Shown here one piece after another: positions 14,175-30,066 of a DNA stretch of 64,000 nt. A program made the translations under genes and the position numbers. The notes under the pieces were generated by a model. It did no database searches. It was not told the origin of the DNA and saw nothing but the letters and a program-made list of their open reading frames with translations. How positions within the stretch are numbered: the stretch's first letter is position 1; the number at the start of each line of letters is the position of its first letter. The DNA is from Pseudoflavitalea sp. G-6-1-2 (GTDB lineage Bacteria; Bacteroidota; Bacteroidia; Chitinophagales; Chitinophagaceae), in contig NZ_JABBGB010000003.1 of NCBI RefSeq assembly GCF_012927185.1, positions 1,054,001 to 1,118,000 on the forward strand, written 5' to 3'.

Positions 14175-14259
14175 GGAGAGATGGCAGAGCGGTCGAATGC
14201 GGCGGTCTTGAAAACCGTTGACTGTTACAGGTCCGGGGGTTCGAATCCCTCTCTCTCCG
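14175..14259 (+). tRNA. tRNA-Ser (anticodon UGA)
   Basis: The 85-nt sequence folds as a class II tRNA. The acceptor stem is GGAGAGA (14175-14181) with TCTCTCC (14252-14258); the anticodon loop CTTGAAA carries TGA; a long variable arm and a T arm with loop TTCGAAT follow. The CCA end is not encoded. The 3' end from the T stem onward is the integration target: 16 bp starting at 14247 recur at 30051. Confidence 0.97.
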
Positions 14260-14262
14260 CTG
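14247..14262 (+). repeat. attL core (16-bp direct repeat)
   Basis: CCCTCTCTCTCCGCTG spans the 3' strand of the T stem, the acceptor strand and three bases beyond the tRNA. It is identical to 30051-30066. Partial similarity continues upstream into the T loop (GGTTC is shared). Confidence 0.92.
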
Positions 14263-14370: not shown

Positions 14371-14412
14371 AATTCGGTGCACCTGGATCTTACTTAATTT
14401 CGGTGCACCGAA
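14371..14412 (+). repeat. Two GGTGCACC-centred repeats near attL
   Basis: AATTCGGTGCACC (14371-14383) is followed by the perfect palindrome TTCGGTGCACCGAA (14399-14412). A third copy, AATTCGGTGCACC with a matching AGGTGG prefix, occurs at 29978-29990 beside attR. Their placement at both ends of the element fits arm-type binding sites for the integrase or an excision factor. Confidence 0.6.
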
Positions 14413-14507
14413 TTTTCCGGAAACGCCCTACTGGTGAGGGTTTGAAGCGATAGAACTTTTAGTGACGGATTTTAATCATTCGTAAAACACAAAAAAGGAG
14501 GTGAAAG

Positions 14508-15758
14508 ATGGAACACCGGATCAGTATTCTTTTTTATGCCCGCAAGTCTAAAATGACCAAAGGGAATTTGACTCCAATCTATGCCCGCATTACAATTAAT
14601 GGGCAACGTCTTGAACACAGCATTCAACGGTATATCGAGGTCGCGCGTTGGAGTGCGGCGGCGGGCCGCGCGCGGGGTAACAGCGTGGAGGCGCGGCAGC
14701 TCAATACCTACCTCGACACCCTTACCGGGAAAGTATTGAAGCTGGAGCGGGAAATGGTGCAGGATGGGCTGGAAATTACTTTTGAAACATTCCGGGAAAA
14801 ATGGATGGGCAACCAGGAACGGCCCCGGATGTTGATTGAAATTTTCCAGCACCACAACGATCAACTGGCGGCTTTGATTGGGAAAGAGTTTTCCGCCGCT
14901 ACCCTGGAACGATATAATACCTCAAGAGATCACACAAAAGCATTTTTGCAATGGAAGTATGGGATCAATGATATTGATATCAAACGCCTGAATTATGAAT
15001 TTGTATCCGATTATGAGTTTTGGCTGAAAACCCAAAGGAACTACAATCACAATACCGCGATCAAGTATATCAGCAATTTCCGGAAGATCATCAATATCTG
15101 TATTCGCAAGGGCTGGCTGCAGAAAGATCCATTCGTGGGTTTTAAGATGACCAAACACGAAGTGGAAAGGGACTTTCTGACGGAAGAAGAATTACAAACT
15201 ATTGTTTCAAGGGATTTTGGTACTGATCGACTAAATCATGTCCGCGACATTTTTGTGTTTAGCTGCTTTACCGGCCTGGCTTATGCAGATGTGCAGAAAT
15301 TGAAGCGGTCTGAGGTGGCCCTTGGGATCGATGGCGACTACTGGATCTTTACGAGTCGGCAGAAAACGGAGACTGCCTCCCGTATTCCTCTTTTGCCTAC
15401 AGCCGTAGAAATATTGGACAGATATAAGGACTACCCTCTTTGTGTGAGTTCGGGCAAAGCCCTACCAGTGTTGAGTAATCAGAAAATGAATGCCTACCTG
15501 AAGGAAATTGCCGATGTATGCAAAATTCATAAGAACCTTACTTTTCATATTGCCCGGCATACTTTCGCTACTACCGTTACGCTCAGTAATGGCGTGCCGA
15601 TGGAATCGGTGAGTAAGATGTTGGGGCATAAAAATCTGAAAACGACGCAGCATTATGCGAAAATCCTGGACAAGAAGGTAAGTGATGATATGAAAGTTTT
15701 GAGGGAGAAGTTTGGCGGTAAAGGTAACGGAAGTTTGAAGCCCAAAACGGCTGGATAA
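14508..15758 (+). CDS. int: Tyrosine site-specific integrase (CTnDOT-like family)
   Basis: This 416-residue recombinase has an N-terminal arm-binding domain (about 1-90, with RISILFYARKSKM), a SAM-like core-binding domain (about 105-205) and a catalytic domain with K286, H347-x2-R350 (HIARHTF), H374 (LGH) and nucleophile Y383 (TTQHYAKI). The usual first catalytic Arg is replaced by Ala in TGLAYADV (A258), a substitution known for the Bacteroidota CTnDOT-type integrases. It catalyses integration and excision at the tRNA-Ser att site 245 bp away. The start has a full Shine-Dalgarno, AGGAGGTGA, rare in this phylum. The C-terminal 33 residues reappear in a remnant at 28819-28920. Confidence 0.95.
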   Translation: MEHRISILFYARKSKMTKGNLTPIYARITINGQRLEHSIQRYIEVARWSAAAGRARGNSVEARQLNTYLDTLTGKVLKLEREMVQDGLEITFETFREKWMGNQERPRMLIEIFQHHNDQLAALIGKEFSAATLERYNTSRDHTKAFLQWKYGINDIDIKRLNYEFVSDYEFWLKTQRNYNHNTAIKYISNFRKIINICIRKGWLQKDPFVGFKMTKHEVERDFLTEEELQTIVSRDFGTDRLNHVRDIFVFSCFTGLAYADVQKLKRSEVALGIDGDYWIFTSRQKTETASRIPLLPTAVEILDRYKDYPLCVSSGKALPVLSNQKMNAYLKEIADVCKIHKNLTFHIARHTFATTVTLSNGVPMESVSKMLGHKNLKTTQHYAKILDKKVSDDMKVLREKFGGKGNGSLKPKTAG

Positions 15759-16007: not shown

Positions 16008-17330
16008 TTACGCTTTATGAAATAATGGGTTTAAAGTTTCTATTCTTGATTTCATCGTCATATCTGCATTTTGCAAATTATTGAAAACGATGTTTAAATT
16101 TCTCACATCAATGATTATATCCCCGGAGAGCATAGCCGAAGGAATAGAAAATGTCGCATCAACAGCGGATGAATTTACCGTTGCCGGATACAGTAAAAGC
16201 ACATTACTGCAATTGCGTCTTAAAGCATAACTAATCATCTGATAAAGGTCAGACTGAGCTACACCAGCCTTCAGGCCATCATTAGTTGAACGGATTTTGT
16301 ACTTGGTGTCAATTATCAGCTTATCGGGAATGTAGATGTCATTACGAATTTGAAAAACAGAAGAACCTTTGCTAAGAGCAAGATAATCGGTACTCTGACT
16401 TCTGATGTTTGATGTTGGCCACTTATCTGAAACAAAGCCAAAAATAAAATCCTCAAAAATGTACTCCATTGGCAGCAAAAAGCAGAAGTTGTTACTATCC
16501 TCATCTTCTAAATCAATTACCTGATTGGACAGGTACAACCTGCACAGATCCAGTATGTGTTTATGTTCGGCAAATAAAGGATTCAGTTTGACTTTATCAC
16601 AATCATTTGCCGAGCAAGGAATATCCGAAACGTCATTTAGGATAAAAAGAATCTCGTTTAACCGTTCCTGATTCAGATAGTTTTCGCTGACAGCAAGCAA
16701 TCGCTTTGTAACGTACTTTACTATCCGATTAAAAAGATTATCGTAAACAAACGGTTCATGGTTGCAAAAGAAATTCTGCCATTTGCCGGTTGTAAGGTTG
16801 CTTTTGGTGTACTCCTCAAATGAAATACGCCCTTTTAAAAACGGGGTTTCTTCACCTACCGTTTGGTATGCCTGAAAAGGCTGATTGGAAATAACGTCTT
16901 CGGTAAAATTGGCAAAAATGTAAATGAGCAGTTCCAGAAAGTCATCGAATTGCAGCTTAGAAACATCGGCAAATGAAAAAGGAAACTTCACCTTCCGGCA
17001 ATAAGAAAGCCAATACAACATGTTAAGTTGCCACTGCTTTGTATTTTCTGCTTCATCATCTGCAAATATTTTGGGGTACACTTCAACACGGATTCCATCA
17101 TATTGTACTACGCCCACATAGTTTCTTGCAGAGATTTTACCATCTATCGTGAAATCAAAAAAACGCTGCCTTTGTATTTTCTCCTCCTGCTGTTCTTCTT
17201 CTGTTAGTTCTTCCGTTGATTCGACATACCGATTCCTGTTTTGCCAAACACCAGAAAGGTAATTGACAAATCCCGGCAGCTTTGATTGATGACCGGCAAA
17301 AGAAACGCTATGCCACTCGAATAACCTCAC
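16008..17330 (-). CDS. mcrC: McrC-type subunit of a McrBC restriction system
   Basis: This 440-residue McrC-family protein has an N-terminal beta-rich McrB-binding region (EWHSVSFAG to ISARNYVGVVQYDGIRVEVYPKI) and a C-terminal PD-(D/E)xK nuclease with the catalytic segment KLIIDTKYKI. In the paradigm, McrC stimulates the McrB GTPase and provides the DNA cleavage site, cutting foreign DNA that carries modified cytosines. The start codon overlaps the McrB stop by 4 bp (ATGA), giving strict coupling and the usual B-C order. It is the last intact gene of the operon. Confidence 0.93.
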   Translation of the reverse strand: MRLFEWHSVSFAGHQSKLPGFVNYLSGVWQNRNRYVESTEELTEEEQQEEKIQRQRFFDFTIDGKISARNYVGVVQYDGIRVEVYPKIFADDEAENTKQWQLNMLYWLSYCRKVKFPFSFADVSKLQFDDFLELLIYIFANFTEDVISNQPFQAYQTVGEETPFLKGRISFEEYTKSNLTTGKWQNFFCNHEPFVYDNLFNRIVKYVTKRLLAVSENYLNQERLNEILFILNDVSDIPCSANDCDKVKLNPLFAEHKHILDLCRLYLSNQVIDLEDEDSNNFCFLLPMEYIFEDFIFGFVSDKWPTSNIRSQSTDYLALSKGSSVFQIRNDIYIPDKLIIDTKYKIRSTNDGLKAGVAQSDLYQMISYALRRNCSNVLLLYPATVNSSAVDATFSIPSAMLSGDIIIDVRNLNIVFNNLQNADMTMKSRIETLNPLFHKA

Positions 17331-19729
17331 TCAGCAATAATTTGAAAATTTTCTTTGATGCCTGTTGATTTTAAAGCTACACCTGCCTCACTTAAAATGT
17401 TTTTCACTGTAGCCGCATTACTTTGACAGTATTCATAAAGCAGGGGTATAATCTTTGTGTTCAATATCCTGGCTCTGTCTGCCTCTGGTTTGTTTATAAA
17501 AAAGGCATGGCCAATAAAAAAATCAGGGTTCTTCTTCCAATTATAAATAGCCTGATTCAAGGCTTCCAGCAGTGATGCCCACCATTCGGATTCTATGTAT
17601 TCAGGGTAGAGTGACTTAAACTCAAACCTTCTTCTCAAAGCAATATCCAATAAAGCAATTGAGCGGTCGGCTGTGTTCATTGTGCCAATAACATACAAAT
17701 TCCCTGGCACACTGAATTTCTCATTTGAATAAGGCAATTCTAACCACATTTCATTGTCTGCTCCTATACGTTTGTCATCTTCAAGCAGGGTGATGAGTTC
17801 GCCAAATACTGCTGAAATATTCGCCCTGTTTATTTCATCAATAAACAAAGCAAACTGCATGGATGGATTGGATTTTGCCGTTTCAAACTTTGCAATCCGG
17901 TTTTCTACTGAATCCTGATAGCATGCTTCAAATGAATCATAACCCACTAAACGCAATGCTTCCAGACAGCTATTGTAGAAGATACCTTTCTTTAATTCAA
18001 ACTGCAATTCACCTGACTGTTCCTCTGCATCTTCACTGCTAAGCAACGGCTTAATGCCTTCGATAAAATCTTCATAGCTGTATTTCTGGTGGAACGTAAT
18101 GAAATTATACCGGGTTTTGAAAGTGGAACTTTGTACTGGTTGCTGCACCGGATTGGCGGCTATGTCTAATAATTCCTGATCAATAATGTCAGCCAAATCC
18201 GCTTTCTTATCTTCTAAAATTGACCATTTGCTATCATTACTCTTCTTAAACAACTGTATAGGACCCTTATACTTTACATCCATATCTGTTGAAGCACTAT
18301 CGGCGTAGGATTGAAGAATACGCCATACAGTATTTCTTGGTGTTTTAGCGTCAGGATTTATCTTTGCTTTAATCAATGGAGACTCTAAAATTTCACTTAC
18401 AGACATAGAAGCACTCCTTGATCCTAATACCGCACCTAATACTTTCCAAAAGGGATAAGCATTTACCTTACCCTTTAGCACATCTTCTGCACTGTTGGTA
18501 ACACCTCTATCGGTGAAGTAGGTTTCTTCGTATTGGTTGAGTTTGTATGTTTTGCCCGTGCCGGGAGGACCATACAGTATTGTATTGATGTACAAGTCTA
18601 ATTTCTTGCCCATATTCTGAGTGTTTGCTTCAATTAATTTTAACAGGGTGTGATACTGCTTTCTGGTTGCTGAAAAGTTGGTTCCCTGATTGCCAACTTT
18701 CAATTCCTCTAAACCTTTCGTGGATTTAATGTTTTGCCACAGCAACGGATTATCGACCAGGTTGTGTGTTAATTCAATACCTGCTTTTAATGATATTTTC
18801 GGCTCTGATTTCCAGAGATGGTTGTCGGGAGATATGCCTGTCTCAGCAGGGTCGTTGGTAATACGTGCCAATGCGTAACAACCTGCTCTTTTGCCGGTAA
18901 GCCAAAGAATGACCTTGTCGTTAGTCTTGATTTTATCTTTATGAGCCGCTACTGTCCAATCGTGTAGCAAATTGCTTTTTACTGCCTTTGCATAATCAAA
19001 TTCTGCCGGGTTGCATTGGAATACCCAATAATTGATAAAGCGATCATGCCAAATACCTAAAACAATATTTTTGTAGGGAGCATGTACCCTGCATATTCCT
19101 TGTTGTAATGGATAAGTAAATACTTCGTCTTCTGACAATTCATACCATTCAACTTTGGAGATATTTACATTGCTATCATATTCAATTTTGTGGTTGTCGA
19201 AATCGGCTTCATACTCCGGGAAATTAACAGATGGTGACGGTGCTTCAAGAACTTTGCCGATTGATAAAACCGTTTGCCCCTCTGTAATGATCACCAAATC
19301 GCCAATGGAGTACATTCTATCATTTACTCCAATAACCATTGAGTGCTTTTTGATGAACTCGTAAAAACTCGGAGCACCTTTCCCCCAATTACAGCCCAGC
19401 TTGCAAACATTACCAGTGAGGTTAACAATAGTACCAAGGATCTGAACAAACCCTTCTTTGGTGGCCGGTATTTCAGGTTCTTCTCCTTTGGGAACAATTT
19501 CAAACTCAAACTTCCTTAGATACTTGTTTGTGGGTTCGCCACCACTGTATAGCCAATCCTTTGTACCATTGGCAAGCAGGTTGGCATACCGCATTATCTC
19601 TTTGGGAGGATACGCCTTCCCGTCGATAACAACATCATAATCTCTCGATCGCTTCAGTTCAATACCTTCCCGTTCGATCTTATCAACCGCATCTAAAACA
19701 TGTTGCTTTGTGATTTTATCAATGCTCAT
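17327..19729 (-). CDS. mcrB: McrB-like AAA+ GTPase with EVE domain
   Basis: This 800-residue protein has three parts. The N-terminal domain (about 1-80; VIDGKAYPPKEIMRYAN) is of the type found on ScoMcrA-like restriction proteins. An EVE/PUA-fold module follows at about 234-360 (YWVFQCNPAEFDYAK, GDKVILW-like KTNDKVILWLTGKRAGCYA), preceded by another beta-rich segment (90-230). The AAA+ motor has Walker A YGPPGTGKT (386-394), Walker B LFIDEINRANIS and the McrB signature GTMNTADRS. EVE domains read modified bases, so this subunit probably selects DNA with modified cytosine or similar. It lies 15 nt after hsdR and overlaps mcrC by 4 bp. Confidence 0.92.
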   Translation of the reverse strand: MSIDKITKQHVLDAVDKIEREGIELKRSRDYDVVIDGKAYPPKEIMRYANLLANGTKDWLYSGGEPTNKYLRKFEFEIVPKGEEPEIPATKEGFVQILGTIVNLTGNVCKLGCNWGKGAPSFYEFIKKHSMVIGVNDRMYSIGDLVIITEGQTVLSIGKVLEAPSPSVNFPEYEADFDNHKIEYDSNVNISKVEWYELSEDEVFTYPLQQGICRVHAPYKNIVLGIWHDRFINYWVFQCNPAEFDYAKAVKSNLLHDWTVAAHKDKIKTNDKVILWLTGKRAGCYALARITNDPAETGISPDNHLWKSEPKISLKAGIELTHNLVDNPLLWQNIKSTKGLEELKVGNQGTNFSATRKQYHTLLKLIEANTQNMGKKLDLYINTILYGPPGTGKTYKLNQYEETYFTDRGVTNSAEDVLKGKVNAYPFWKVLGAVLGSRSASMSVSEILESPLIKAKINPDAKTPRNTVWRILQSYADSASTDMDVKYKGPIQLFKKSNDSKWSILEDKKADLADIIDQELLDIAANPVQQPVQSSTFKTRYNFITFHQKYSYEDFIEGIKPLLSSEDAEEQSGELQFELKKGIFYNSCLEALRLVGYDSFEACYQDSVENRIAKFETAKSNPSMQFALFIDEINRANISAVFGELITLLEDDKRIGADNEMWLELPYSNEKFSVPGNLYVIGTMNTADRSIALLDIALRRRFEFKSLYPEYIESEWWASLLEALNQAIYNWKKNPDFFIGHAFFINKPEADRARILNTKIIPLLYEYCQSNAATVKNILSEAGVALKSTGIKENFQIIAE

Positions 19730-19744
19730 AAAAGACTACGGTAG

Positions 19745-22732
19745 TTATTTATTTGGCTGAATATTGTGGTTTTGTTTCCAGATTCTGTCAAACACAAAAT
19801 CGAGGTATTGCCTTTTGAAATCGGCATCATCTGTAAACTTCTTGTATAAATCGGTATAGGTGAAAATGACATCCTGCATCAGGTCTTCCACCTTTTTATC
19901 AGAGGTGATTTTTGCATTTTGTTTATCTGAATTAATGACTGCATTAACCGTTGCCTGGTCTCTGGCTAAGTCGGCAGGCAATTGTTCAAATAGGAACCGC
20001 TTTACCTTGTCATCATCTGTCCAGTTATCAATGCCAAAACGGGTATTGAAATCATTAATGATGGCCTCCAGTTCATCAAACTCATTATCGCCTTTCTTGC
20101 CTTTCATTATTGCCGGGGTGGGGTCTAATTCTTCACCGCCCTGCAATTTGATGTTGTCGGTTGTTGTTTTGCTTAGCCTGTAACTATCCAGGTCTATGGC
20201 TTCCAGTATGCCTTTTGCCAAATCCTCATTTTCCTGCTGCTTAATTTTTGGCATCAGGAATTTCAAAAACCAATACAGCCTTTCCCAATAAGGATTATTG
20301 AAGGATAAAATCTTTGAAAGGAAAGCGTAGGTTCGGTTAAAGGATTTTGCCTTTACATAAAAGTCTACCTGAGCATCGGGATTGAGTTCTGTTTTAAACT
20401 GATGCACACAGCCGTCTATAATGGGGTCTAATTCAGTACGGTCTGCATTTTTGAAATACAGGTCGGTAAAGTTGATCACATCGTCTTTGCTGTACACCTG
20501 TGCATTATCCAACGCATCCTGCAAATCGTTCAGCTTGTTGGCATCGGTTTCTTCACTCAATACTGTTGTGGTGTAGAAAGGCTCAAACGATTCCTTAATG
20601 TCATCTACAGAGTTGAAGAAATCAAGCACAAAAGTGTCTTCCTTATCAGGCTTGTACGCCCTGTTTAATCGTGAAAGCGTTTGAACGGCCTGCACATCGG
20701 TTAGCTTCTTATCTACATACATGGTATGCAGTAAAGGCTGGTCGAAACCTGTTTGGAATTTATTGGCCACAATAAGGAAACGATATTCATTTTTCTTGAA
20801 CAACTTTGGAATATCTCCACTTGGGAAACCGTTGAGTTTGGCTTCATCATATTCCACGCCATCAATGGTTCTTTTACCGGAGAAGGCAACGATGGCTTTG
20901 TATGGCGAATGAATTTCTTTGAGATACGTATTGAATGCCCTGTAGTACTGAATGGCATTGTTGATGGATTTGGTTACCACCATCGCTTTTGCCTTACCCT
21001 TAATCTGCTTTTTTACTTCGCTGTGGAAATGGTCCACCATTACTTTCGACTTTTCCCTAATGGAAAAGGCATGATTCTCCACATAAGCCCTTAGCTTCTT
21101 TTGTGCCTGATGGGTTTCAAATTCCGGGTTTTCTTCAACTGCCTTATTGAGCTTGTAATAGCTTTGGTAGGTGGTATAGTTTTTCAGCACATCGAGAATA
21201 AATTCTTCCTCGATGGCCTGTTTCATGCTGTATAAGTGGAATGGGTAAAACTTACCGGGTTCTCTTGCGGTATCATCCGGCAATATGCCTTTGCGGCCAA
21301 AGGTTTCCAGTGTTTTGTTTTTGGGTGTAGCCGTAAAAGCAAAGTAGCTGGCATTCTTCAGCATCTTGCGTTGCTGAATCATTTGGTTTATCTGGTCTTC
21401 GGTATCTTCCGGTTCTTCGTCAGGAATTTTATCTTCATCACCGTAAGGTTCGCTGCGGTCGCTGAGTACCCAATTCATTTTGGATGCGGTTTCTCCGCTT
21501 TGGCTGCTGTGTGCTTCATCTATAATGATGGCGAAACGCTTTCCTGCCAATTCGCCAATTTCATCCATCACAAAGGGAAATTTCTGTACGGTGGTAATGA
21601 TAATTTTCTTGCCATCTTCCAACGCCTGTTTCAACTGCTTGCTGCCTTTATCAATGGCTTCCACCACTTTGGCCACTTGTGCAAACTGTTTGATGTTGTC
21701 CCGTATTTGTTTGTCCAGGACTTTACGGTCGGTTACTACAATTACGCTGTCAAAAACAGGTTGTGTATTGGCTGCTTCGTGCAGGCTTACCAACTGATGG
21801 GCCAACCAAGTAATAGAATTGGATTTGCCAGAACCTGCGGAATGCTGAATTAAGTATCGCTGCCCAACACCGTTTGCCTTTGAATCGGCCAACAGCTTTT
21901 GCACCACTTTGAGCTGGTGGTAACGGGGGAATACCAGTTTGCGTTTAACCTTGCCGGTATCTTCATCCGTTTCCTCTACAATCTGTGCGTAGTTTTCAAT
22001 GATGTTGCTCAGGCTGTGTTTGGTGAGTATCTCCTTCCATAAATAATCACTTTTCAGCCCGTTGGGATTAACCGGATTGCCTGCACCGTTGTTTACGCCT
22101 TTGTTGAAAGGGAGGAAAAAGGTAGAGAAGCCCGACAAGGCGGTAGCCATGTACACCAAATCGGGGTCAACAGCAAAATGAACCATGCAACGGCCAAAGG
22201 CAAACAATGGCTCTTTAGGGTCACGGTCGGTTTGGTATTGGCGAATGGCATGTTTAACATTCTGCCCTGTCCAAGGGTTTTTCAATTCAAAAGTAATTAC
22301 AGGAAGGCCGTTGATGAACAAGGCCATGTCCAGCGAATTGTTGTTGCTGAGGCTGTAATGCAGTTGACGGGTAATGGAAAATATATTGGACTGATACAGT
22401 TTGGTGGCTTTGGCATTGAGGGTGGAGGCAGGGCTTTTGAAATACAGCCATACATTGAGGTCGAGGTCTTTAATGCCTTTACGCAACACATCAATAATGC
22501 CCCGTTGTTTGATTTGCTCGGCAAGGCGTTTCAGGAATTTTTCTTCGCCCCGCTTTTGTATGGTATCCCATGCATCGGGTTGGGTGCTTTGCAAAAACTC
22601 AAACAATAGTTTTCTATTCAGGCATAAATCCCTGTCGTAATCCGTTGGGTACGAAATACGAAACGCCTGCTCCTCTACCAGGCTTTTTTCGATGAGGGTT
22701 TCTAACCCTTTTTCTGATGTATCTGTACTCAT
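19745..22732 (-). CDS. hsdR: Type I restriction enzyme R subunit (HsdR)
   Basis: This 995-residue motor-nuclease has an N-terminal PD-(D/E)xK nuclease with D135, E149 and K151 in DMALFINGLPVITFELK. The SF2 translocase follows, with Walker A HSAGSGKSNS (about 297-306), a DEAH box (IIDEAHSSQSG), TATPKNKT, and the C-terminal motif VI region QTLSRLNRAYK. A helical C-terminal tail joins the M2S complex. It translocates DNA and cuts far from the recognition site when it meets unmethylated targets. It starts 3 nt after the hsdS stop. The length is usual for the family and it appears intact. Confidence 0.96.
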   Translation of the reverse strand: MSTDTSEKGLETLIEKSLVEEQAFRISYPTDYDRDLCLNRKLLFEFLQSTQPDAWDTIQKRGEEKFLKRLAEQIKQRGIIDVLRKGIKDLDLNVWLYFKSPASTLNAKATKLYQSNIFSITRQLHYSLSNNNSLDMALFINGLPVITFELKNPWTGQNVKHAIRQYQTDRDPKEPLFAFGRCMVHFAVDPDLVYMATALSGFSTFFLPFNKGVNNGAGNPVNPNGLKSDYLWKEILTKHSLSNIIENYAQIVEETDEDTGKVKRKLVFPRYHQLKVVQKLLADSKANGVGQRYLIQHSAGSGKSNSITWLAHQLVSLHEAANTQPVFDSVIVVTDRKVLDKQIRDNIKQFAQVAKVVEAIDKGSKQLKQALEDGKKIIITTVQKFPFVMDEIGELAGKRFAIIIDEAHSSQSGETASKMNWVLSDRSEPYGDEDKIPDEEPEDTEDQINQMIQQRKMLKNASYFAFTATPKNKTLETFGRKGILPDDTAREPGKFYPFHLYSMKQAIEEEFILDVLKNYTTYQSYYKLNKAVEENPEFETHQAQKKLRAYVENHAFSIREKSKVMVDHFHSEVKKQIKGKAKAMVVTKSINNAIQYYRAFNTYLKEIHSPYKAIVAFSGKRTIDGVEYDEAKLNGFPSGDIPKLFKKNEYRFLIVANKFQTGFDQPLLHTMYVDKKLTDVQAVQTLSRLNRAYKPDKEDTFVLDFFNSVDDIKESFEPFYTTTVLSEETDANKLNDLQDALDNAQVYSKDDVINFTDLYFKNADRTELDPIIDGCVHQFKTELNPDAQVDFYVKAKSFNRTYAFLSKILSFNNPYWERLYWFLKFLMPKIKQQENEDLAKGILEAIDLDSYRLSKTTTDNIKLQGGEELDPTPAIMKGKKGDNEFDELEAIINDFNTRFGIDNWTDDDKVKRFLFEQLPADLARDQATVNAVINSDKQNAKITSDKKVEDLMQDVIFTYTDLYKKFTDDADFKRQYLDFVFDRIWKQNHNIQPNK

Positions 22733-22735
22733 AGA

Positions 22736-23971
22736 TTATGCTACTTTAATTTTACCTGTTACTACCTCAGCAATCAGGCTATTTTTAAATTCATTGAGCT
22801 TCTGTTTTTCAACTTCAAACACCTTGACTAACTCTTCAAAACGGATAAAATCCTCCATCATCATCTTTACATCATCTTCAGTTGGAATTGGTATTGGCAA
22901 TTCAGCAAAGTCCACCCAATTAACATTCTTACCATCTCTAATTCCTGTAATTGCTGTATTCAAAAGCGAAATGAACTGGGGTGTTTTAAATAAATATTTA
23001 TAATACTGAGTCATCCAAGGCGATTCATATTGTTCTCTTAAATTGAATATTGTGTAAGCAGGACTAATAATCCCCCTATACGGTGAATACTCAATACCAC
23101 CTTGGAATGAACGAAGGCTAATTACAAAGTCATTTTCACAAACAAGTTTTAAGCCCGATAAATCACCGGCTGGTGAAACAAAATTTTCAGAGCACATGTC
23201 TTTAGGTAGAACTCCTCGATCCTGTGTGGATGCCAATAGTGCTTCTGAGGATTTATTCTTTATGTTCCTCTCTATAAAAATCCGTTTAGCCTTTTCAACT
23301 TTCCACGTTTTAGGTATTGTAGGCCAAAATTTGGAATCGTTTAATTGTTCTCCCTCTATTGATTGAACAATGACATCAATCTTCTCCCTAAGGCTTTTAA
23401 TCAGCTTTTCTTTTTTCTCAATAAAGCGGTTGATTTGTTCGGTTTTGGCATCGAGGTAGTTGGCAATGGCGGTTTGTTCGGGCAGTGGGGGGAACGGCAA
23501 TAACGAATCTTTGAACTCAGCATAGTCAATATTCTGCCCTTCCCTGATGCCGGTTACAAAAAGAGTCAATGAATTAATGAAAGGATGTGATTTGAATAAG
23601 TGTCTGTAAAAAGCCTTATTCACTGGCACTTTATTTTTTTCATAAAAAATGGTGTATGCCGGGCTAATAATACCCCTGTGATAAGCATACTCAATGCCGC
23701 CCTGAAATGAACGTAAGCTGATAACAAAATCTTCTTCTTTGACCAGTTTCAGCAAATGAAAATCTTTTTGTGCCGTAACAGTTCTGGTCTCATATTCTTC
23801 TTTCCTTACTACACCTTTTGTTTGTGTGGCAGCCAACAAGGGTTCATTAGGATAGCCCTTCTCTGAACGTTCCTTAAAAATGTGCTTAGCCTTTAATGCA
23901 TCCCAATGCTCAGGCATTTCAGGCAGCCAGGGGATAGAAGTTGATTTATATGTAGGGTATGATGCTCTCAT
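22736..23971 (-). CDS. hsdS: Type I specificity subunit (HsdS) with two near-duplicate TRDs
   Basis: This 411-residue protein has two target-recognition domains (about 15-165 and 220-370), separated by a coiled-coil spacer (TAIANYLDAKTEQINRFIEKKEK) and ending in a second conserved helix (EEDFIRFEELVKVFEVEKQKL region). Both TRDs carry DFVISLRSFQGGIEY, YRGIISPAYTIF and TGIR(E/D)G motifs, so they are very similar. In type I systems each TRD reads one half of a bipartite target. Two alike TRDs imply two alike, oppositely oriented half-sites. It lies 7 nt after the HNH gene and 3 nt before hsdR. Confidence 0.94.
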   Translation of the reverse strand: MRASYPTYKSTSIPWLPEMPEHWDALKAKHIFKERSEKGYPNEPLLAATQTKGVVRKEEYETRTVTAQKDFHLLKLVKEEDFVISLRSFQGGIEYAYHRGIISPAYTIFYEKNKVPVNKAFYRHLFKSHPFINSLTLFVTGIREGQNIDYAEFKDSLLPFPPLPEQTAIANYLDAKTEQINRFIEKKEKLIKSLREKIDVIVQSIEGEQLNDSKFWPTIPKTWKVEKAKRIFIERNIKNKSSEALLASTQDRGVLPKDMCSENFVSPAGDLSGLKLVCENDFVISLRSFQGGIEYSPYRGIISPAYTIFNLREQYESPWMTQYYKYLFKTPQFISLLNTAITGIRDGKNVNWVDFAELPIPIPTEDDVKMMMEDFIRFEELVKVFEVEKQKLNEFKNSLIAEVVTGKIKVA

Positions 23972-23978
23972 TATTCAA

Positions 23979-24746
23979 TTAAATGGGGTCAGCGATATTT
24001 GCAGGGTTACGGGGAATGGGCTTATAACCATTGGCAGGGTCAAAACAATTTGTTGCCGTACCTTGGATAATTGTATTATCAGTTAGCCTTTCCATAACCA
24101 AAGGCTCATTCATAAACTCTTCGTACCACAAGCTAAAAAAGCCGCTATCTGCTGCTCTTCTTGCTATATCTGTAGCAACTACATTAGCATTATATGTGGG
24201 TGAAGCAACAGCCATATCATACACCTGCCGGGCTGATTGGACAGATAACATTGCAGCCTTACGTTTTAAACTTCGGATGTCAACAATAGCAGGCCTTTCA
24301 TCAATGTTATCCAACTCAAGAAGGTCAATGGTGTCCTCTGCTTTTTGTTGTTGAGCAGCAAGAACGTCCGGAACTGCCTTAGCGGCTACTATTGCATGAT
24401 CCGGATTTATTGATAGCACTATTGAAAAGGGTAAATGTGTATTATGCTCTTCTGGCAGATAATAGATGTTTGCATCTACCGGGTTATTACTTTTTGCATT
24501 GTTACATGGGCCACAAGCAAGCAGCATATTTGACCATGCAATCGGATCGCCTGCAGTGTAACCCGGAGGAGGATTCTTTGGAACCACATGTTCCACTTGC
24601 AGACTATGACTTAACGGTTGGTTACAATACACACAATAATAGCCAATCCGTTCAATTAATGCTTTACGCCAATTTTTATAATCGGTAGGTGCAATTACAT
24701 TACCTGTTGCATCAGTAGGTGTATTTCCTTTATTTAATGGCCTCAT
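23979..24746 (-). CDS. ptuB: PtuB-like HNH endonuclease
   Basis: This 255-residue protein has an HNH core in the N-terminal third: C38-x2-C41 (CVYC), the catalytic pair E52-H53 (QVEHVVPK), N73, the second zinc knuckle C78-x2-C81 (CGPC) and CNNAK. The Cys-x2-Cys, EHxxPK, LLAC, CN arrangement is that of PtuB, the nuclease of Septu systems and of retron Ec78. Its start overlaps the ATPase stop by 4 bp (ATGA), as in ptuAB pairs. No reverse transcriptase or msr/msd is nearby, so a retron is excluded. The C-terminal half has no recognised domain. It probably cuts nucleic acid when released by the ATPase. Confidence 0.8.
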   Translation of the reverse strand: MRPLNKGNTPTDATGNVIAPTDYKNWRKALIERIGYYCVYCNQPLSHSLQVEHVVPKNPPPGYTAGDPIAWSNMLLACGPCNNAKSNNPVDANIYYLPEEHNTHLPFSIVLSINPDHAIVAAKAVPDVLAAQQQKAEDTIDLLELDNIDERPAIVDIRSLKRKAAMLSVQSARQVYDMAVASPTYNANVVATDIARRAADSGFFSLWYEEFMNEPLVMERLTDNTIIQGTATNCFDPANGYKPIPRNPANIADPI

Positions 24747-26008
24747 TTCCCTTTAGAAATTTTTTGTAGTTCAAGAAATGCTCTTACTGCCGGGTCTGAA
24801 ATATCATCCAGTTCTTTTTGAAGCTCATCCACAGATTTATTTGATTCGAGGTCTTCCATGAATTTTTTGCTTTTATTATAAAGGCCCTCGTTAGATTCAG
24901 AGTAAGCACTTGAAACGCCCATTATCTCGGTTGCTACGGTATCAATCTTTAACTCGTCTGGAGCTACATCCATTAATTTGTCAAGATTCCAGATTTCATC
25001 ACTTTTTAAGGATTGAACAATGAATGGAGAATGGGTAGTAACGACAAATTGAATATTTGGGAATGCTTTCTTTAAATCAGCAACAACATGCCTTTGCCAC
25101 TTAGGATGAAGATGGAGATCAATTTCATCAATCATAACAACACCCCTTGTTTCCTCAACTGCTTTTTCTTTGTGATGCCCGTTCAGGACTATACAGCGAT
25201 AGGCAATTTCTGCAACCATTTCAGTGAAATAGTGAATACCATCGCTGTGCAGACTTAAAGGAAGCATGTTAGATTCATCCCCATCTATCTTTACTTTTAC
25301 CCATAACTCACCATCGTAAAACTCCATTTGGGTAATAAATGAATTTGCAGTTTTCACGGCATGGAAGAAAGCCTCTTTTGTACGAGGGTACTCCTTTTCC
25401 TGATTAAGTAATACTTCATAACGTGCAAGCCATTCCGGATAATGAAATTTTACCGCTTTCATTTCCTCCCAATCTTGATAACCTTCACGGAATAGCATTT
25501 TACCCAAACGCTGTATGCGACTTTTCTTAGTGACACGTCCCGCACCAACAGCCCGTGATATTCCATAAAATGCGATGATAGGCAAGCCCACTGTATCGTC
25601 ACCATCTTTTGTAACTTTCTGATATTTGGAAGATGCTATCGCCTTGATGTTACCAACATCGGAATTTCTAATAGTTGACGATGAACTGCCCTCTAACCAC
25701 TGCCTACGCCATATAACAGGCTCATTAATTCCAGGAAAAAAAGCCTTTGCTTCTACTTTCACAGGATACTGAGGCAATAACAACTTACCAGATTCATCCA
25801 TCCTAATTTCATCCTTCTGAATATGCCGGGATTTAACATCTGGAATAGCAAGAAAATAAGAACCACTCGCCACCCGTAAGGCATGGAGAATGGTTGATTT
25901 ACCTTTACCGTTAATACCGATAAAAGCTGTAAAATGCCTATTCAGGAGAAAGGTTCGTTCCTTTCCAATATTCCTGAAGTTTTGTATGGTGATGCTTTCT
26001 ATATTCAT
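24743..26008 (-). CDS. ptuA: PtuA-like ABC/AAA ATPase
   Basis: This 421-residue SMC/ABC-type ATPase has Walker A GINGKGKST (31-39), a signature-like LSLHSDGIH (251-259), Walker B VVMIDEIDLHLHP with D294-E295, and the switch His in TTHSPFIVQS (about 324-333). That layout is the one found in OLD, RloA and PtuA ATPases of defence systems; the HNH partner overlapping its 3' end makes PtuA the best fit. It lies between hsdM (3 nt) and hsdS, a position known for accessory rlo genes in type I loci. In Septu the ATPase holds PtuB in check and senses infection; here that is inferred. Confidence 0.8.
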   Translation of the reverse strand: MNIESITIQNFRNIGKERTFLLNRHFTAFIGINGKGKSTILHALRVASGSYFLAIPDVKSRHIQKDEIRMDESGKLLLPQYPVKVEAKAFFPGINEPVIWRRQWLEGSSSSTIRNSDVGNIKAIASSKYQKVTKDGDDTVGLPIIAFYGISRAVGAGRVTKKSRIQRLGKMLFREGYQDWEEMKAVKFHYPEWLARYEVLLNQEKEYPRTKEAFFHAVKTANSFITQMEFYDGELWVKVKIDGDESNMLPLSLHSDGIHYFTEMVAEIAYRCIVLNGHHKEKAVEETRGVVMIDEIDLHLHPKWQRHVVADLKKAFPNIQFVVTTHSPFIVQSLKSDEIWNLDKLMDVAPDELKIDTVATEIMGVSSAYSESNEGLYNKSKKFMEDLESNKSVDELQKELDDISDPAVRAFLELQKISKGK

Positions 26009-26011
26009 CGT

Positions 26012-28003
26012 TTAAGCTATTATATCGTTTAATAAACCTTCAGTTTCTCTTTCCAGCTGCATTATCTCCTCGGTGATGGTAGCCACACTTCGCAATGGTT
26101 GGTAGCGATAGAAAATTTTGGTAAAGGACACTTCATAGCCTTTAACCGTTTTTGAATGGTCAATCCATGCATCGGGAACAAAGGGCCACACTTCCTTTTC
26201 AAAATACTCCTGCACATTTTGCTTTACAGGAACACTCTCGTAATCCCGTAATTCAGGGTCGGCTTCATAAATTACTTCGTCTTTGTCCTGCTTTTTGATA
26301 ACAGGTTGGGCTTCTTCATCACGCCATGACAGTGCATCTAAAAAAGTTTTCTTCTCTTTTGGCTTCCACTTCAATGACAATTTCTTTAGCTGCGTATCTA
26401 ATGCAGACAATAGTTGATTGAAGTCGTTTTGAACAGCAGTGCCAAACTGCTTTTGCAATGCTTTGAGTACCGGCAAATAGTAATCAGTATCCTCAATTGC
26501 AGATAGCTTTTCTTCTGTTAGCTGCCATGCCAAACGCAAAGGCCGTTCTACCGTAATACTCCAATAGGCAAAGTCATCGTTTTCAAAATTTCTGCTGATT
26601 TCGTTCTGTTGAAAATCTTTAAATGCATCTGCAATTTGTTGGATATGGGTTTCCGTCAATTCATTTGACTTGCTGCCTAAACCCTTTCGCATTTTGCTGT
26701 AGATGCTAGAGGCATCAATCAATTGAACTTTACCTTTTCTTCTTTCCTCTTTTTTGTTACTCAACACCCATATATACGTTGCGATGCCAGTGTTATAAAA
26801 CATATCATTGGGCAACTGAATGATTGCTTCGAGTAAATCGTTTTCAATGATGTACTTTCTGATTTCGCTTTCACCTCCACCAGCTTCTCCTGTAAAGAGT
26901 GATGAACCGTTATGAACAGAAGCAATACGGCTGCCTATTTCACTATCGACCTTCATTTTGGAAACCATGTTCATCAAGAACAGCAACTGGCCATCACTTA
27001 CTCTTGGTACACCAACACTAAAGCGACTATCAAGAATCTCTTTTGTTTTTGAATCAACAATGCTGTCCTGGTCAACCTTCCATGTTTTACCATAAGGCGG
27101 ATTGGACAGCATAAAGTCAAACTTTAGCTTGGGAAAGCCATCATTTGACAAAGTAGAACCAAAAGCAATCTTCTCAGGGTCTTCCTCTTTAATGAGCATA
27201 TCTGCTTTGCAGATGGCAAATGTTTCAGGGTTCACTTCCTGACCGTATAAATGGTAGGTTGCTTTGGGATTTATTTCCAATGCAAAATGTTCGGCTTCCG
27301 TTAACATACCACCACTGCCACAAGCAGGGTCATAAATGAGATAAGTACCTTCCTTTATTTTGTTTTTGACGGGTTCAAAAATGAGGTGGGTCATCAACTT
27401 AATGATTTCCCTTGGTGTGAAGTGTTCACCAGCTTCTTCGTTGTTTTCTTCATTGAACTTGCGAATAAGCTCCTCAAAAACATAGCCCATTCCCAGATTA
27501 CTCAATCCTTCATGCACAATGTTTCCATCCTTATCTTTCACCGCTACCGGACTAAGGTTGATTTGAGAAGAACAGAATTTTTCAATCAATGGGAACGTGA
27601 TATTGCCTTCTTCAAGCGTATCCAACTGATTACGCAATTTGAATTTGCTAATGATGTCCTGCACATCTGAACTAAAGCCATCCAGATAATTTTCAAGGTT
27701 CTGCCGAATGTTTGCAGGGTCATTCAGTAACTTCTTGAAAGTGTATTTAGAAGTGTTGTAAAAAACGTATCCTGATACCTTTCTTAGCTGTGGTGACTGA
27801 TTTTCGATTTTCAACTTATTGAGTTGCTCATGCATTTCAATCACCTTGTCTTTTGAAGGCTCCAGCAAAGCATCTAACCTGCGTAATACCGTGAATGGAA
27901 GTATTATATCTCTGTATTTGCCTCGTGTATAAACATCTCGAAGCACATCATCGGCAATACCCCAAATGAAATTGACAATTTGATTATGTTGGATATGGTT
28001 CAT
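26012..28003 (-). CDS. hsdM: Type I DNA methyltransferase (HsdM)
   Basis: This 663-residue N6-adenine methyltransferase has an N-terminal HsdM helical domain (1-170), SAM motif I DPACGSGG (225-232) and catalytic motif NPPY (301-304). A long C-terminal region (about 450-663), including a Lys/Asp-rich segment near 560-600, is larger than in E. coli HsdM. With HsdS it methylates the recognition site and protects self DNA. Its ATG overlaps the XRE regulator stop by 4 bp, so it is the second gene of the operon. It appears complete. Confidence 0.96.
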   Translation of the reverse strand: MNHIQHNQIVNFIWGIADDVLRDVYTRGKYRDIILPFTVLRRLDALLEPSKDKVIEMHEQLNKLKIENQSPQLRKVSGYVFYNTSKYTFKKLLNDPANIRQNLENYLDGFSSDVQDIISKFKLRNQLDTLEEGNITFPLIEKFCSSQINLSPVAVKDKDGNIVHEGLSNLGMGYVFEELIRKFNEENNEEAGEHFTPREIIKLMTHLIFEPVKNKIKEGTYLIYDPACGSGGMLTEAEHFALEINPKATYHLYGQEVNPETFAICKADMLIKEEDPEKIAFGSTLSNDGFPKLKFDFMLSNPPYGKTWKVDQDSIVDSKTKEILDSRFSVGVPRVSDGQLLFLMNMVSKMKVDSEIGSRIASVHNGSSLFTGEAGGGESEIRKYIIENDLLEAIIQLPNDMFYNTGIATYIWVLSNKKEERRKGKVQLIDASSIYSKMRKGLGSKSNELTETHIQQIADAFKDFQQNEISRNFENDDFAYWSITVERPLRLAWQLTEEKLSAIEDTDYYLPVLKALQKQFGTAVQNDFNQLLSALDTQLKKLSLKWKPKEKKTFLDALSWRDEEAQPVIKKQDKDEVIYEADPELRDYESVPVKQNVQEYFEKEVWPFVPDAWIDHSKTVKGYEVSFTKIFYRYQPLRSVATITEEIMQLERETEGLLNDIIA

Positions 28004-28293
28004 TTCTTCTTTTTAATCTTTCGTGAAACGGATTTTAAAGCCTCATCAGCCATGTTTTCATCTTTGATAACATCAAAAACCTGGTCTGCAAGCCAAAGGG
28101 TAATGAGTTCATCCTTATCAGCTTTCAGGATTTCGGCAAGCAAAGGGATCTGCTCCTTCTTCAAATGGCGTTGCCCTTTTTCAATTTTACTAAGCTGGGC
28201 GGTATCCATCTCAAGTAAGGGGGCAACCTGCCGCAAATACAGTTTCTGCTTTTCCCTCAAGGCTCTAACCCTATTACCAAACTGGCTTTCCAT
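28000..28293 (-). CDS. XRE-family controller of the defence operon
   Basis: ATG 28293 (MESQFGNRVRALREKQ) is taken as start; an upstream in-frame TTG at 28314 lies inside a palindrome and is less likely. The 97-residue product has a helix-turn-helix (YLRQVAPLLEMDTAQLSKIEKGQRH) and a basic tail ending KKKK. Being first in the operon, overlapping hsdM by 4 bp and having TTGAC-N2-GTCAA directly before its start, it is most likely an autorepressor like C proteins of R-M systems, delaying expression of the nucleases until methylation is established. That role is inferred from layout. Confidence 0.88.
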   Translation of the reverse strand: MESQFGNRVRALREKQKLYLRQVAPLLEMDTAQLSKIEKGQRHLKKEQIPLLAEILKADKDELITLWLADQVFDVIKDENMADEALKSVSRKIKKKK

Positions 28294-28302
28294 TGTCTTT
28301 TT

Positions 28303-28314
28303 TTGACTTGTCAA
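28303..28314 (-). promoter_or_regulatory. Palindromic operator before the XRE gene
   Basis: TTGACTTGTCAA is a 5-bp inverted repeat with a 2-nt centre, starting 10 nt upstream of the ATG at 28293 and just downstream of a candidate -7 box. The position suits repression of transcription initiation by the XRE protein. Confidence 0.6.
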
Positions 28315-28321
28315 TATTTGG

Positions 28322-28352
28322 CTAATATAGGCAAAAAAGAAATTCCTGACAA
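28322..28352 (-). promoter_or_regulatory. Candidate promoter of the defence operon
   Basis: On the minus strand TTG (28350-28352), a 20-bp spacer and TATATTAG (28322-28329) approximate TTG-19-TAnnTTTG, with one mismatch in the -7 box. It is the only promoter-like signal found upstream of the eight-gene operon. Confidence 0.5.
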
Positions 28353-28818: not shown

Positions 28819-28920
28819 ATACAAATTCTGGGCAGGAAGGTGAGTGAGGATATGAAGATAATGCGGGAGAAATTTGGCGCGAAAGGTAATCGAAGTTGGA
28901 CGCCCAAAACGGCTGGATGA
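28819..28920 (+). pseudogene. C-terminal remnant of a second integrase
   Basis: Thirty-three codons ending in TGA read KVSEDMKIMREKFGAKGN and then a tail PKTAG, closely matching the last 33 residues of the intact integrase (KVSDDMKVLREKFGGKGN, PKTAG). The catalytic Tyr and everything upstream are missing. The remnant shows that a related element sat to the right of the present one and lost most of its integrase by deletion. Confidence 0.8.
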
Positions 28921-28969
28921 TAATGATAACATCAGATACCGGTTATGAGAAAAACTCTTAAATTGTAGT

Positions 28970-29815: not shown

Positions 29816-29977
29816 TGATTCATATGTTAAACAGAACCTATCTACATGAACCAGTTCTCATAAAAGATATGGTTAGTAAATGTAATGTAAAGAGATTATT
29901 ACAGGGGCCGGGAGAACAGTACTTTGAATTTTATTCTTGGAAAAGATGTAATTTCGTCTATTGTCACAGAGGTGGCA

Positions 29978-29990
29978 AATTCGGTGCACC
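29978..29990 (+). repeat. GGTGCACC repeat near attR
   Basis: AATTCGGTGCACC, preceded by AGGTGGCA, copies the attL-proximal repeat at 14371-14383 (preceded by AGGTGGA) in the same orientation, 61 bp before the attR core. Confidence 0.6.
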
Positions 29991-30050
29991 GGCCAGTAAC
30001 AGTGAGTCTAAATCTTTGATAATAAACTAAATTAGAGAGTAGGTTCAACT

Positions 30051-30066
30051 CCCTCTCTCTCCGCTG
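30051..30066 (+). repeat. attR core (16-bp direct repeat)
   Basis: CCCTCTCTCTCCGCTG is identical to the tRNA-Ser 3' end at 14247-14262. The T-loop side has diverged (GGTTCAACT against GGTTCGAAT), so no second functional tRNA exists here. Confidence 0.92.

What the first reader, a model, noticed from the sequence alone, without database searches (positions are those of the whole stretch)
16008..28293. One operon fuses type I R-M, a Septu-like PtuA/PtuB pair and EVE-McrBC
Eight genes run XRE, hsdM, ptuA-like, ptuB-like, hsdS, hsdR, mcrB, mcrC on one strand with overlaps or gaps of 3-15 nt. The ATPase-HNH pair sits inside the hsd cluster, between M and S. A methyltransferase, a restriction motor, a modified-base nuclease and an abortive-type pair would thus be co-expressed. 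Accessory ATPases inside hsd loci are known (rlo genes), and Septu and McrBC are known separately. This exact integrated order under a single XRE controller I do not recall being described. It would cover unmodified phage DNA (type I), base-modified DNA (McrBC-EVE) and restriction escape (PtuAB).
Basis: partly seen in the sequence, partly recalled or inferred. Interest (0 to 1): 0.82.

Follow-up and report, generated by a model that had tools for sequence, protein, structure and literature searches.

The report
Septu pair embedded in restriction-modification operon
A mobile bacterial island carries one compact operon in which a complete Septu anti-phage pair sits inside a type I restriction-modification system, with McrBC behind it; relatives show that this slot is repeatedly refilled with different defence genes while the rest of the operon hardly changes.

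Summary
Eight genes on the minus strand (28293→16008) read XRE, HsdM, PtuA, PtuB, HsdS, HsdR, EVE-McrB, McrC, with junctions of -4 to +15 nt, and all catalytic motifs look intact. The pair is genuine Septu by profile (PtuA 3e-96, PtuB 1e-46) and by predicted structure. The operon fills a ~15.8-kb island at tRNA-Ser with an integrase. It is not a one-off: a second Chitinophagaceae genome has HsdM, HsdR, McrB and McrC at 94-99% identity but PtuA, PtuB and HsdS at only ~33-36%, and no XRE; a Flavobacteriales genome has PtuA at 78% plus two extra genes. Unrelated hsd operons carry other PtuAB lineages in the M-S or the S-R slot. So the hsd operon is a near-constant chassis whose M-S junction is a payload slot that has taken up PtuAB several times. 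Embedding a defence module in an hsd operon is known (PrrC, RloF, TgvAB), and hsd beside mcrBC is the enteric immigration control region. Septu as the embedded payload, swapped while the chassis stays fixed, I did not find described. Most likely PtuAB is an autonomous second-layer effector under the hsd promoter; PrrC-style coupling to HsdRMS is possible but untested.

The parts
14175..14260 (+). tRNA-Ser(TGA), attachment site of the island (attL side)
14238..14262 (+). attL-like repeat, 3' end of tRNA-Ser; partner at 30042-30066
   Evidence: family D8: 23 of 25 nt identical, last 17 nt exact
14508..15758 (+). tyrosine recombinase (integrase) of the island
   Evidence: PF13102, PF00589, PF17293
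16008..17330 (-). McrC, PD-(D/E)xK nuclease subunit
   Evidence: PF10117 4.6e-68; DIYI..DTKYK motif translation
17327..19729 (-). EVE-McrB GTPase with a modified-base reading domain; lacks ~146 aa (at ~19437) present in relatives
19745..22732 (-). HsdR, restriction/translocation subunit
   Evidence: GSGKS and DEAH motifs present
22736..23971 (-). HsdS, specificity subunit with two homologous target-recognition domains
   Evidence: D2
23979..24746 (-). PtuB, HNH nuclease of Septu
   Evidence: 1e-46; best PDB matches are PtuB chains
24743..26008 (-). PtuA, ABC-type ATPase of Septu
   Evidence: 2.7e-96; 8ee4 5.6e-31; 8sux, 8eea
26012..28003 (-). HsdM, N6-adenine methyltransferase
   Evidence: DPACGSGG and NPPY motifs
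28000..28293 (-). XRE-family regulator, probable autorepressor of the hsd operon
28303..28314 (-). palindromic operator TTGACAAGTCAA between promoter and XRE start
   Evidence: conserved upstream of XRE in relatives
28324..28352 (-). probable promoter of the operon (TATATTAG resembles the Bacteroidota -7 box TAnnTTTG; also a sigma-70-like hit upstream)
   Evidence: the number of promoter-like hits in the region is no higher than in shuffles, so support comes from conservation
28823..28931 (+). integrase remnant, 80% identical to the 3' end of the resident integrase gene
   Evidence: family D1
30042..30066 (+). attR-like repeat, far end of the island
   Evidence: family D8

Best explanation
This is a mobile type I R-M island whose hsd operon is a conserved chassis with exchangeable payload positions. 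Here the HsdM-HsdS junction holds a complete Septu (PtuA ATPase plus PtuB HNH nuclease), and the position after HsdR holds EVE-McrBC. Shown by sequence: gene identities, order and tight spacing, island borders, near-identical chassis with different PtuAB and HsdS alleles in other genomes, several separate PtuAB lineages in hsd slots, and a conserved XRE operator. Inferred: XRE represses the promoter until enough of it accumulates; one transcript makes all components; HsdRMS cuts unmethylated DNA; McrBC cuts DNA with bases read by EVE; and PtuAB is an autonomous effector that senses infection through its ATPase and stops the cell or phage by PtuB cleavage (tRNA-Tyr or DNA in characterised Septu) when restriction fails. 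PtuAB borrows the operon's expression and mobility rather than forming a fixed complex with HsdM.
For: Operon anatomy. Septu identity by profile, PDB sequence and fold, with Walker A K37, Walker B D294/E295 and HNH H53/N73 conserved. No RT hit among the operon proteins and integrase and no retron RNA, so it is Septu rather than a retron. L100: HsdM 98.0%, HsdR 98.7% and McrB 94.5% against PtuA 35%, PtuB 36%, HsdS 33%, with DNA identity changing at the HsdM stop codon and ~25 codons before the PtuB stop. L099/L185: HsdM 98%, PtuA 78%, PtuB 67% plus a DpdF-like helicase pair, then HsdR 97-99.5%, McrB and McrC, split over two contigs. L043 and L079 carry other PtuAB lineages in the M-S and S-R slots of divergent hsd operons. 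The PtuA tree puts the M-S-linked PtuA in three places, forced by well-supported branches; their nearest non-hsd kin are loci without hsd genes. Census: 40 of 104 M-S and 68 of 88 S-R intervals hold cargo, much of it in defence families. Operator conservation. Septu and retron-Eco7 PtuAB cleave tRNA-Tyr and act abortively (PMC13096335, PMC11555353). TgvAB embedded in a type I operon still protects without the hsd genes (PMC11411939).
Against: No expression, methylation or phage data. The single transcript and autonomy of PtuAB are inferred. HsdS changes together with PtuAB in L100, so coupling to HsdS rather than HsdM is not excluded. tgvAB alone protected less than the whole Vibrio cluster, a hint that embedded modules can gain from the hsd genes (PMC11411939).
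Confidence: 0.6

Rival explanations
1. PrrC-like guard: PtuAB is held silent by the HsdRMS complex and is released when a phage anti-restriction protein inactivates or remodels the type I enzyme, killing the cell by tRNA or DNA cleavage.
For: PrrC, an ABC-ATPase tRNA nuclease encoded inside the EcoprrI operon, works this way (PMC3874165, PMC2610378). Retron-Eco7 PtuAB is a toxin held by a partner complex and cleaves tRNA-Tyr (PMC11555353). PtuAB has entered hsd operons several times and in two slots.
Against: PtuA/PtuB alleles only ~35% identical sit on 98%-identical HsdM and HsdR, which argues against a fixed allele-specific interface. The closest relatives outside the clade lie at loci without hsd. 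PtuA gives no PrrC or RloC match among the best PADLOC hits.
Confidence: 0.2
2. Passive bundling: defence genes simply collect in islands, and the operon position gives PtuAB nothing beyond transcription; hsd, Septu and McrBC act with no functional relation.
For: The slots accept many unrelated genes (YhcG-type nucleases, GmrSD, OLD-like ATPases, Schlafen-type proteins). PtuAB is found in only a few percent of hsd loci.
Against: Repeated capture in tight, same-strand positions inside hsd, far above a crude random rate (0.008 expected, 4 lineages observed; 2 even after leaving out the near-identical clade), and preservation of the complete chassis around it.
Confidence: 0.2

Closest known systems
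EcoprrI (hsd operon with embedded prrC anticodon nuclease)
   Same: an ABC-ATPase-based effector gene inside a type I R-M operon; backs up restriction
   Different: effector is the two-protein PtuAB, not PrrC; it sits between M and S; silencing by the R-M complex is not shown; McrBC follows
Septu (stand-alone PtuA-PtuB)
   Same: PtuA and PtuB by profile, PDB match and predicted fold; two overlapping genes
   Different: lies inside an hsd operon and probably shares its transcription unit
Vibrio cholerae VPI-2 type I operon with embedded TgvAB; C. jejuni rlo genes
   Same: a second defence module carried within the hsd genes, in VPI-2 also on a genomic island
   Different: TgvAB is a GmrSD-type modification-dependent nuclease; here Septu is embedded and the modification-dependent enzyme (EVE-McrBC) follows HsdR
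Enteric immigration control region (hsdRMS with mcrBC)
   Same: type I R-M adjacent to McrBC
   Different: here mcrB starts 15 nt after hsdR, McrB carries EVE, and the unit lies in a tRNA-Ser island
Retron I-A (Ec78/Eco7, PtuAB effector)
   Same: PtuA/PtuB effector
   Different: no reverse transcriptase hit and no retron RNA in the operon

Membership tests
Septu | PtuA ATPase of the Septu family with Walker A and B | tested here: met
Septu | PtuB HNH nuclease with catalytic H and N | tested here: met
   H53, N73 and four Cys invariant
Septu | ptuA and ptuB adjacent as a pair | tested here: met
   4-nt overlap
Septu | anti-phage activity requiring both proteins | not testable with these tools
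   needs phage assays
Type I restriction-modification | HsdM, HsdS and HsdR present with catalytic motifs | tested here: met
Type I restriction-modification | methylates and cuts a bipartite site | not testable with these tools
   needs methylome data
McrBC type IV restriction (EVE-McrB) | McrB GTPase with reading domain, followed by McrC nuclease | tested here: met
   EVE match is modest (8e-8) but above Pfam's cut-off
McrBC type IV restriction (EVE-McrB) | restricts modified DNA | not testable with these tools
   in-frame absence of ~146 aa relative to relatives leaves activity open
EcoprrI/PrrC-type guard | effector embedded in the hsd operon | tested here: met
EcoprrI/PrrC-type guard | effector is a PrrC homologue | tested here: not met
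   best profiles are PtuA, no PrrC among the best hits shown
EcoprrI/PrrC-type guard | silenced by HsdRMS, released by anti-restriction | not testable with these tools
   needs co-expression assays
Retron I-A | reverse transcriptase and msr/msd RNA with PtuAB | tested here: not met
   no RT among the operon proteins; no RNA family except tRNA

The most novel reading that the evidence does not exclude
The M-S junction of this hsd lineage is a dedicated effector-exchange position: PtuAB (and other effectors) are swapped like HsdS recognition domains, and the type I enzyme regulates or triggers the embedded PtuAB, making a PrrC-like guarded system with interchangeable Septu effectors.
Probability: 0.2. 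Interest if true: 0.8.

Novelty: new variant of a known kind. Interest (0 to 1): 0.52.

Why it matters
It gives natural near-isogenic operons that share HsdM, HsdR and McrBC but differ in PtuAB and HsdS. With them one can test directly whether an embedded effector depends on its restriction system or only shares its promoter and vehicle, a question open for most embedded defence genes. It also shows that PtuAB occurs in at least two contexts beyond stand-alone Septu and retrons: the M-S and S-R positions of hsd operons.

Tried and rejected
Viral contigs: no relatives of this PtuA. Plasmids and phages: only distant PtuA. Retron origin rejected for lack of RT hit and RNA. The 510-516 aa 'PtuA' hits in L103 and L174 rejected as PtuAB: short local matches, L103 scores best as HEC-04, and neither locus has a PtuB-profile hit. 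Empty-site comparison within the genus failed: the flanking gene is only 32-46% identical and no tRNA lies beside it. Sigma-70 and terminator scans were no better than shuffles. No held paper found describes Septu inside an hsd operon, but the library lacks preprints, including the Payne et al. 2024 preprint on embedded defences.

Full report
Observation. The window carries eight contiguous minus-strand genes, XRE-HsdM-PtuA-PtuB-HsdS-HsdR-McrB-McrC, from 28293 down to 16008, with junctions between -4 and +15 nt. Profile searches confirm every assignment. Catalytic motifs read directly from the translations are intact: DPACGSGG/NPPY (HsdM), GSGKS/DEAH (HsdR), GKGKS and IDE (PtuA), HNH with CxxC pairs (PtuB), GPPGTGKT/IDEINR (McrB), D..DTK (McrC).

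Island. tRNA-Ser (14175-14260) is followed by a tyrosine integrase. The 3' end of the tRNA is repeated at 30042-30066 with 17 exact nt. The operon is thus most likely cargo of a ~15.8-kb integrated island, which also holds an integrase remnant at 28823-28931.

Septu identity. PtuA's best PDB sequence match is Septu PtuA 8ee4 (5.6e-31), and its predicted structure (mean pLDDT 82) matches E. coli Septu PtuA best, ahead of retron PtuA. The PtuB model (pLDDT 90) has only three matches with E below 0.01, all PtuB of retron PtuAB complexes. No RT domain in the operon proteins and no retron RNA were found.

Relatives with the same chassis. Using HsdM as bait, 80 named loci were fetched. L100 (Chitinophagaceae isolate SCNH_1) holds HsdM, PtuA, PtuB, HsdS, HsdR, McrB, McrC in the same order. 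HsdM is 98.0% identical, HsdR 98.7%, McrB 94.5%, but PtuA and PtuB are ~35% and HsdS ~33% by local alignment. DNA identity falls from 83-90% to ~60% at the HsdM stop codon and returns to 93-100% near the end of PtuB, running into the first codons of HsdS. L100 has no XRE; instead a tRNA-like sequence with a GAA (Phe) anticodon lies about 0.5 kb upstream of HsdM (read by eye, not scanned). L099 (Flavobacteriales MS006; same as G696) has XRE and HsdM at 98%, PtuA 78%, PtuB 67%, then a DpdF-like helicase and a 212-aa protein before HsdS; HsdR, McrB and McrC continue on another contig of that genome. L101 has HsdM 96% followed by a NERD-helicase and a DpdF-like gene instead of PtuAB. L186 carries HsdR 99% and the same 212-aa protein.

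Independent captures. Among 116 distinct hsd loci, 104 had M and S and 40 of these had cargo between them; 68 of 88 had cargo between S and R. Cargo is rich in YhcG-type nucleases, GmrSD, OLD/AAA ATPases and Schlafen-type proteins. True PtuAB pairs occur in the M-S slot of L099, L100 and L043 and in the S-R slot of L079. In the PtuA tree the M-S-linked proteins need three label changes that well-supported branches force; strictly, three changes could also be one gain and two losses. Closest non-hsd relatives lie at loci without hsd genes, in one case beside an aldehyde-dehydrogenase-family gene. A crude Poisson estimate gives 0.008 expected against 4 lineages, and P about 3e-5 when the near-identical clade is left out. 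This uses a rough PtuA density and a bait-selected set of loci, and it reflects defence cargo in general rather than PtuAB alone.

Control. Upstream of XRE lies TTGACAAGTCAA, conserved at the same distance in relatives, after a Bacteroidota-type -7 box (TATATTTG in L043). Loci with a different XRE recognition helix (L106, L110, L120) carry TTGTCAAGACAA or close forms. XRE with this operator also heads hsd operons without PtuAB. So XRE probably autoregulates the hsd operon and is not part of a Septu circuit.

Mechanism. The chassis tolerates very different PtuAB with almost unchanged HsdM and HsdR, so a fixed PtuAB-HsdM complex is unlikely; autonomous PtuAB sharing the promoter and the vehicle fits best. 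Characterised Septu and retron PtuAB cleave tRNA-Tyr and act abortively (PMC13096335, PMC11555353), while one Septu was reported to attack nicked DNA (as cited in PMC11555353). The precedent for autonomy is TgvAB (PMC11411939), and for guarding PrrC (PMC3874165, PMC2610378).

Comparison and verdict. Embedding in hsd operons and hsd-mcrBC adjacency are known (PMC11411939, PMC12707154). Septu as the payload, its repeated capture, and the swap of payload and HsdS on a constant chassis were not found in the held literature; the library holds no preprints. New variant of a known kind; interest 0.52.

Noticed in passing
window 24743-25000 (PtuA tail) and 23979-24746 (PtuB): PtuA is a mosaic: across 20 PtuAB pairs the tail after the TTHSPF motif tracks PtuB identity (r 0.92; 0.86 after correcting for the head) while the ATPase head does not (partial 0.21; 0 of 2000 permutations). 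Tail and PtuB seem to move as one exchangeable module.
   Followed up: partly
window ~19437 (McrB): McrB lacks about 146 aa, in frame, that L100 and L185 carry and that the gapped match in L186 also implies; an extra N-terminal domain seems to have been lost here.
   Followed up: partly
window 28303-28314; L106, L110, L120 upstream of XRE: The XRE operator seems to covary with the recognition helix (TTGACAAGTCAA versus TTGTCAAGACAA).
   Followed up: partly
L099:14036-19186, L186:5434-6030, L101:4418-5442: A DpdF/PsyrT-like 1502-aa helicase with a 212-aa, seemingly coiled-coil and membrane-ended partner sits in the same slot; the partner is 100% identical over 198 aa in L186, and L101 has a DpdF-like gene. 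Candidate embedded defence module.
   Followed up: no
116 hsd loci (L043, L060-L178): 38% of M-S and 77% of S-R intervals in this type I family hold accessory genes, many in known or candidate defence families.
   Followed up: partly
window 14401-14418 and 29974-29991: 18-nt inverted repeat (94%) just inside both island ends, possibly integrase arm sites (I16).
   Followed up: no
window 23046-23149 and 23646-23749: The two halves of HsdS are homologous (72% DNA identity over 104 nt), suggesting similar half-site recognition (D2).
   Followed up: no
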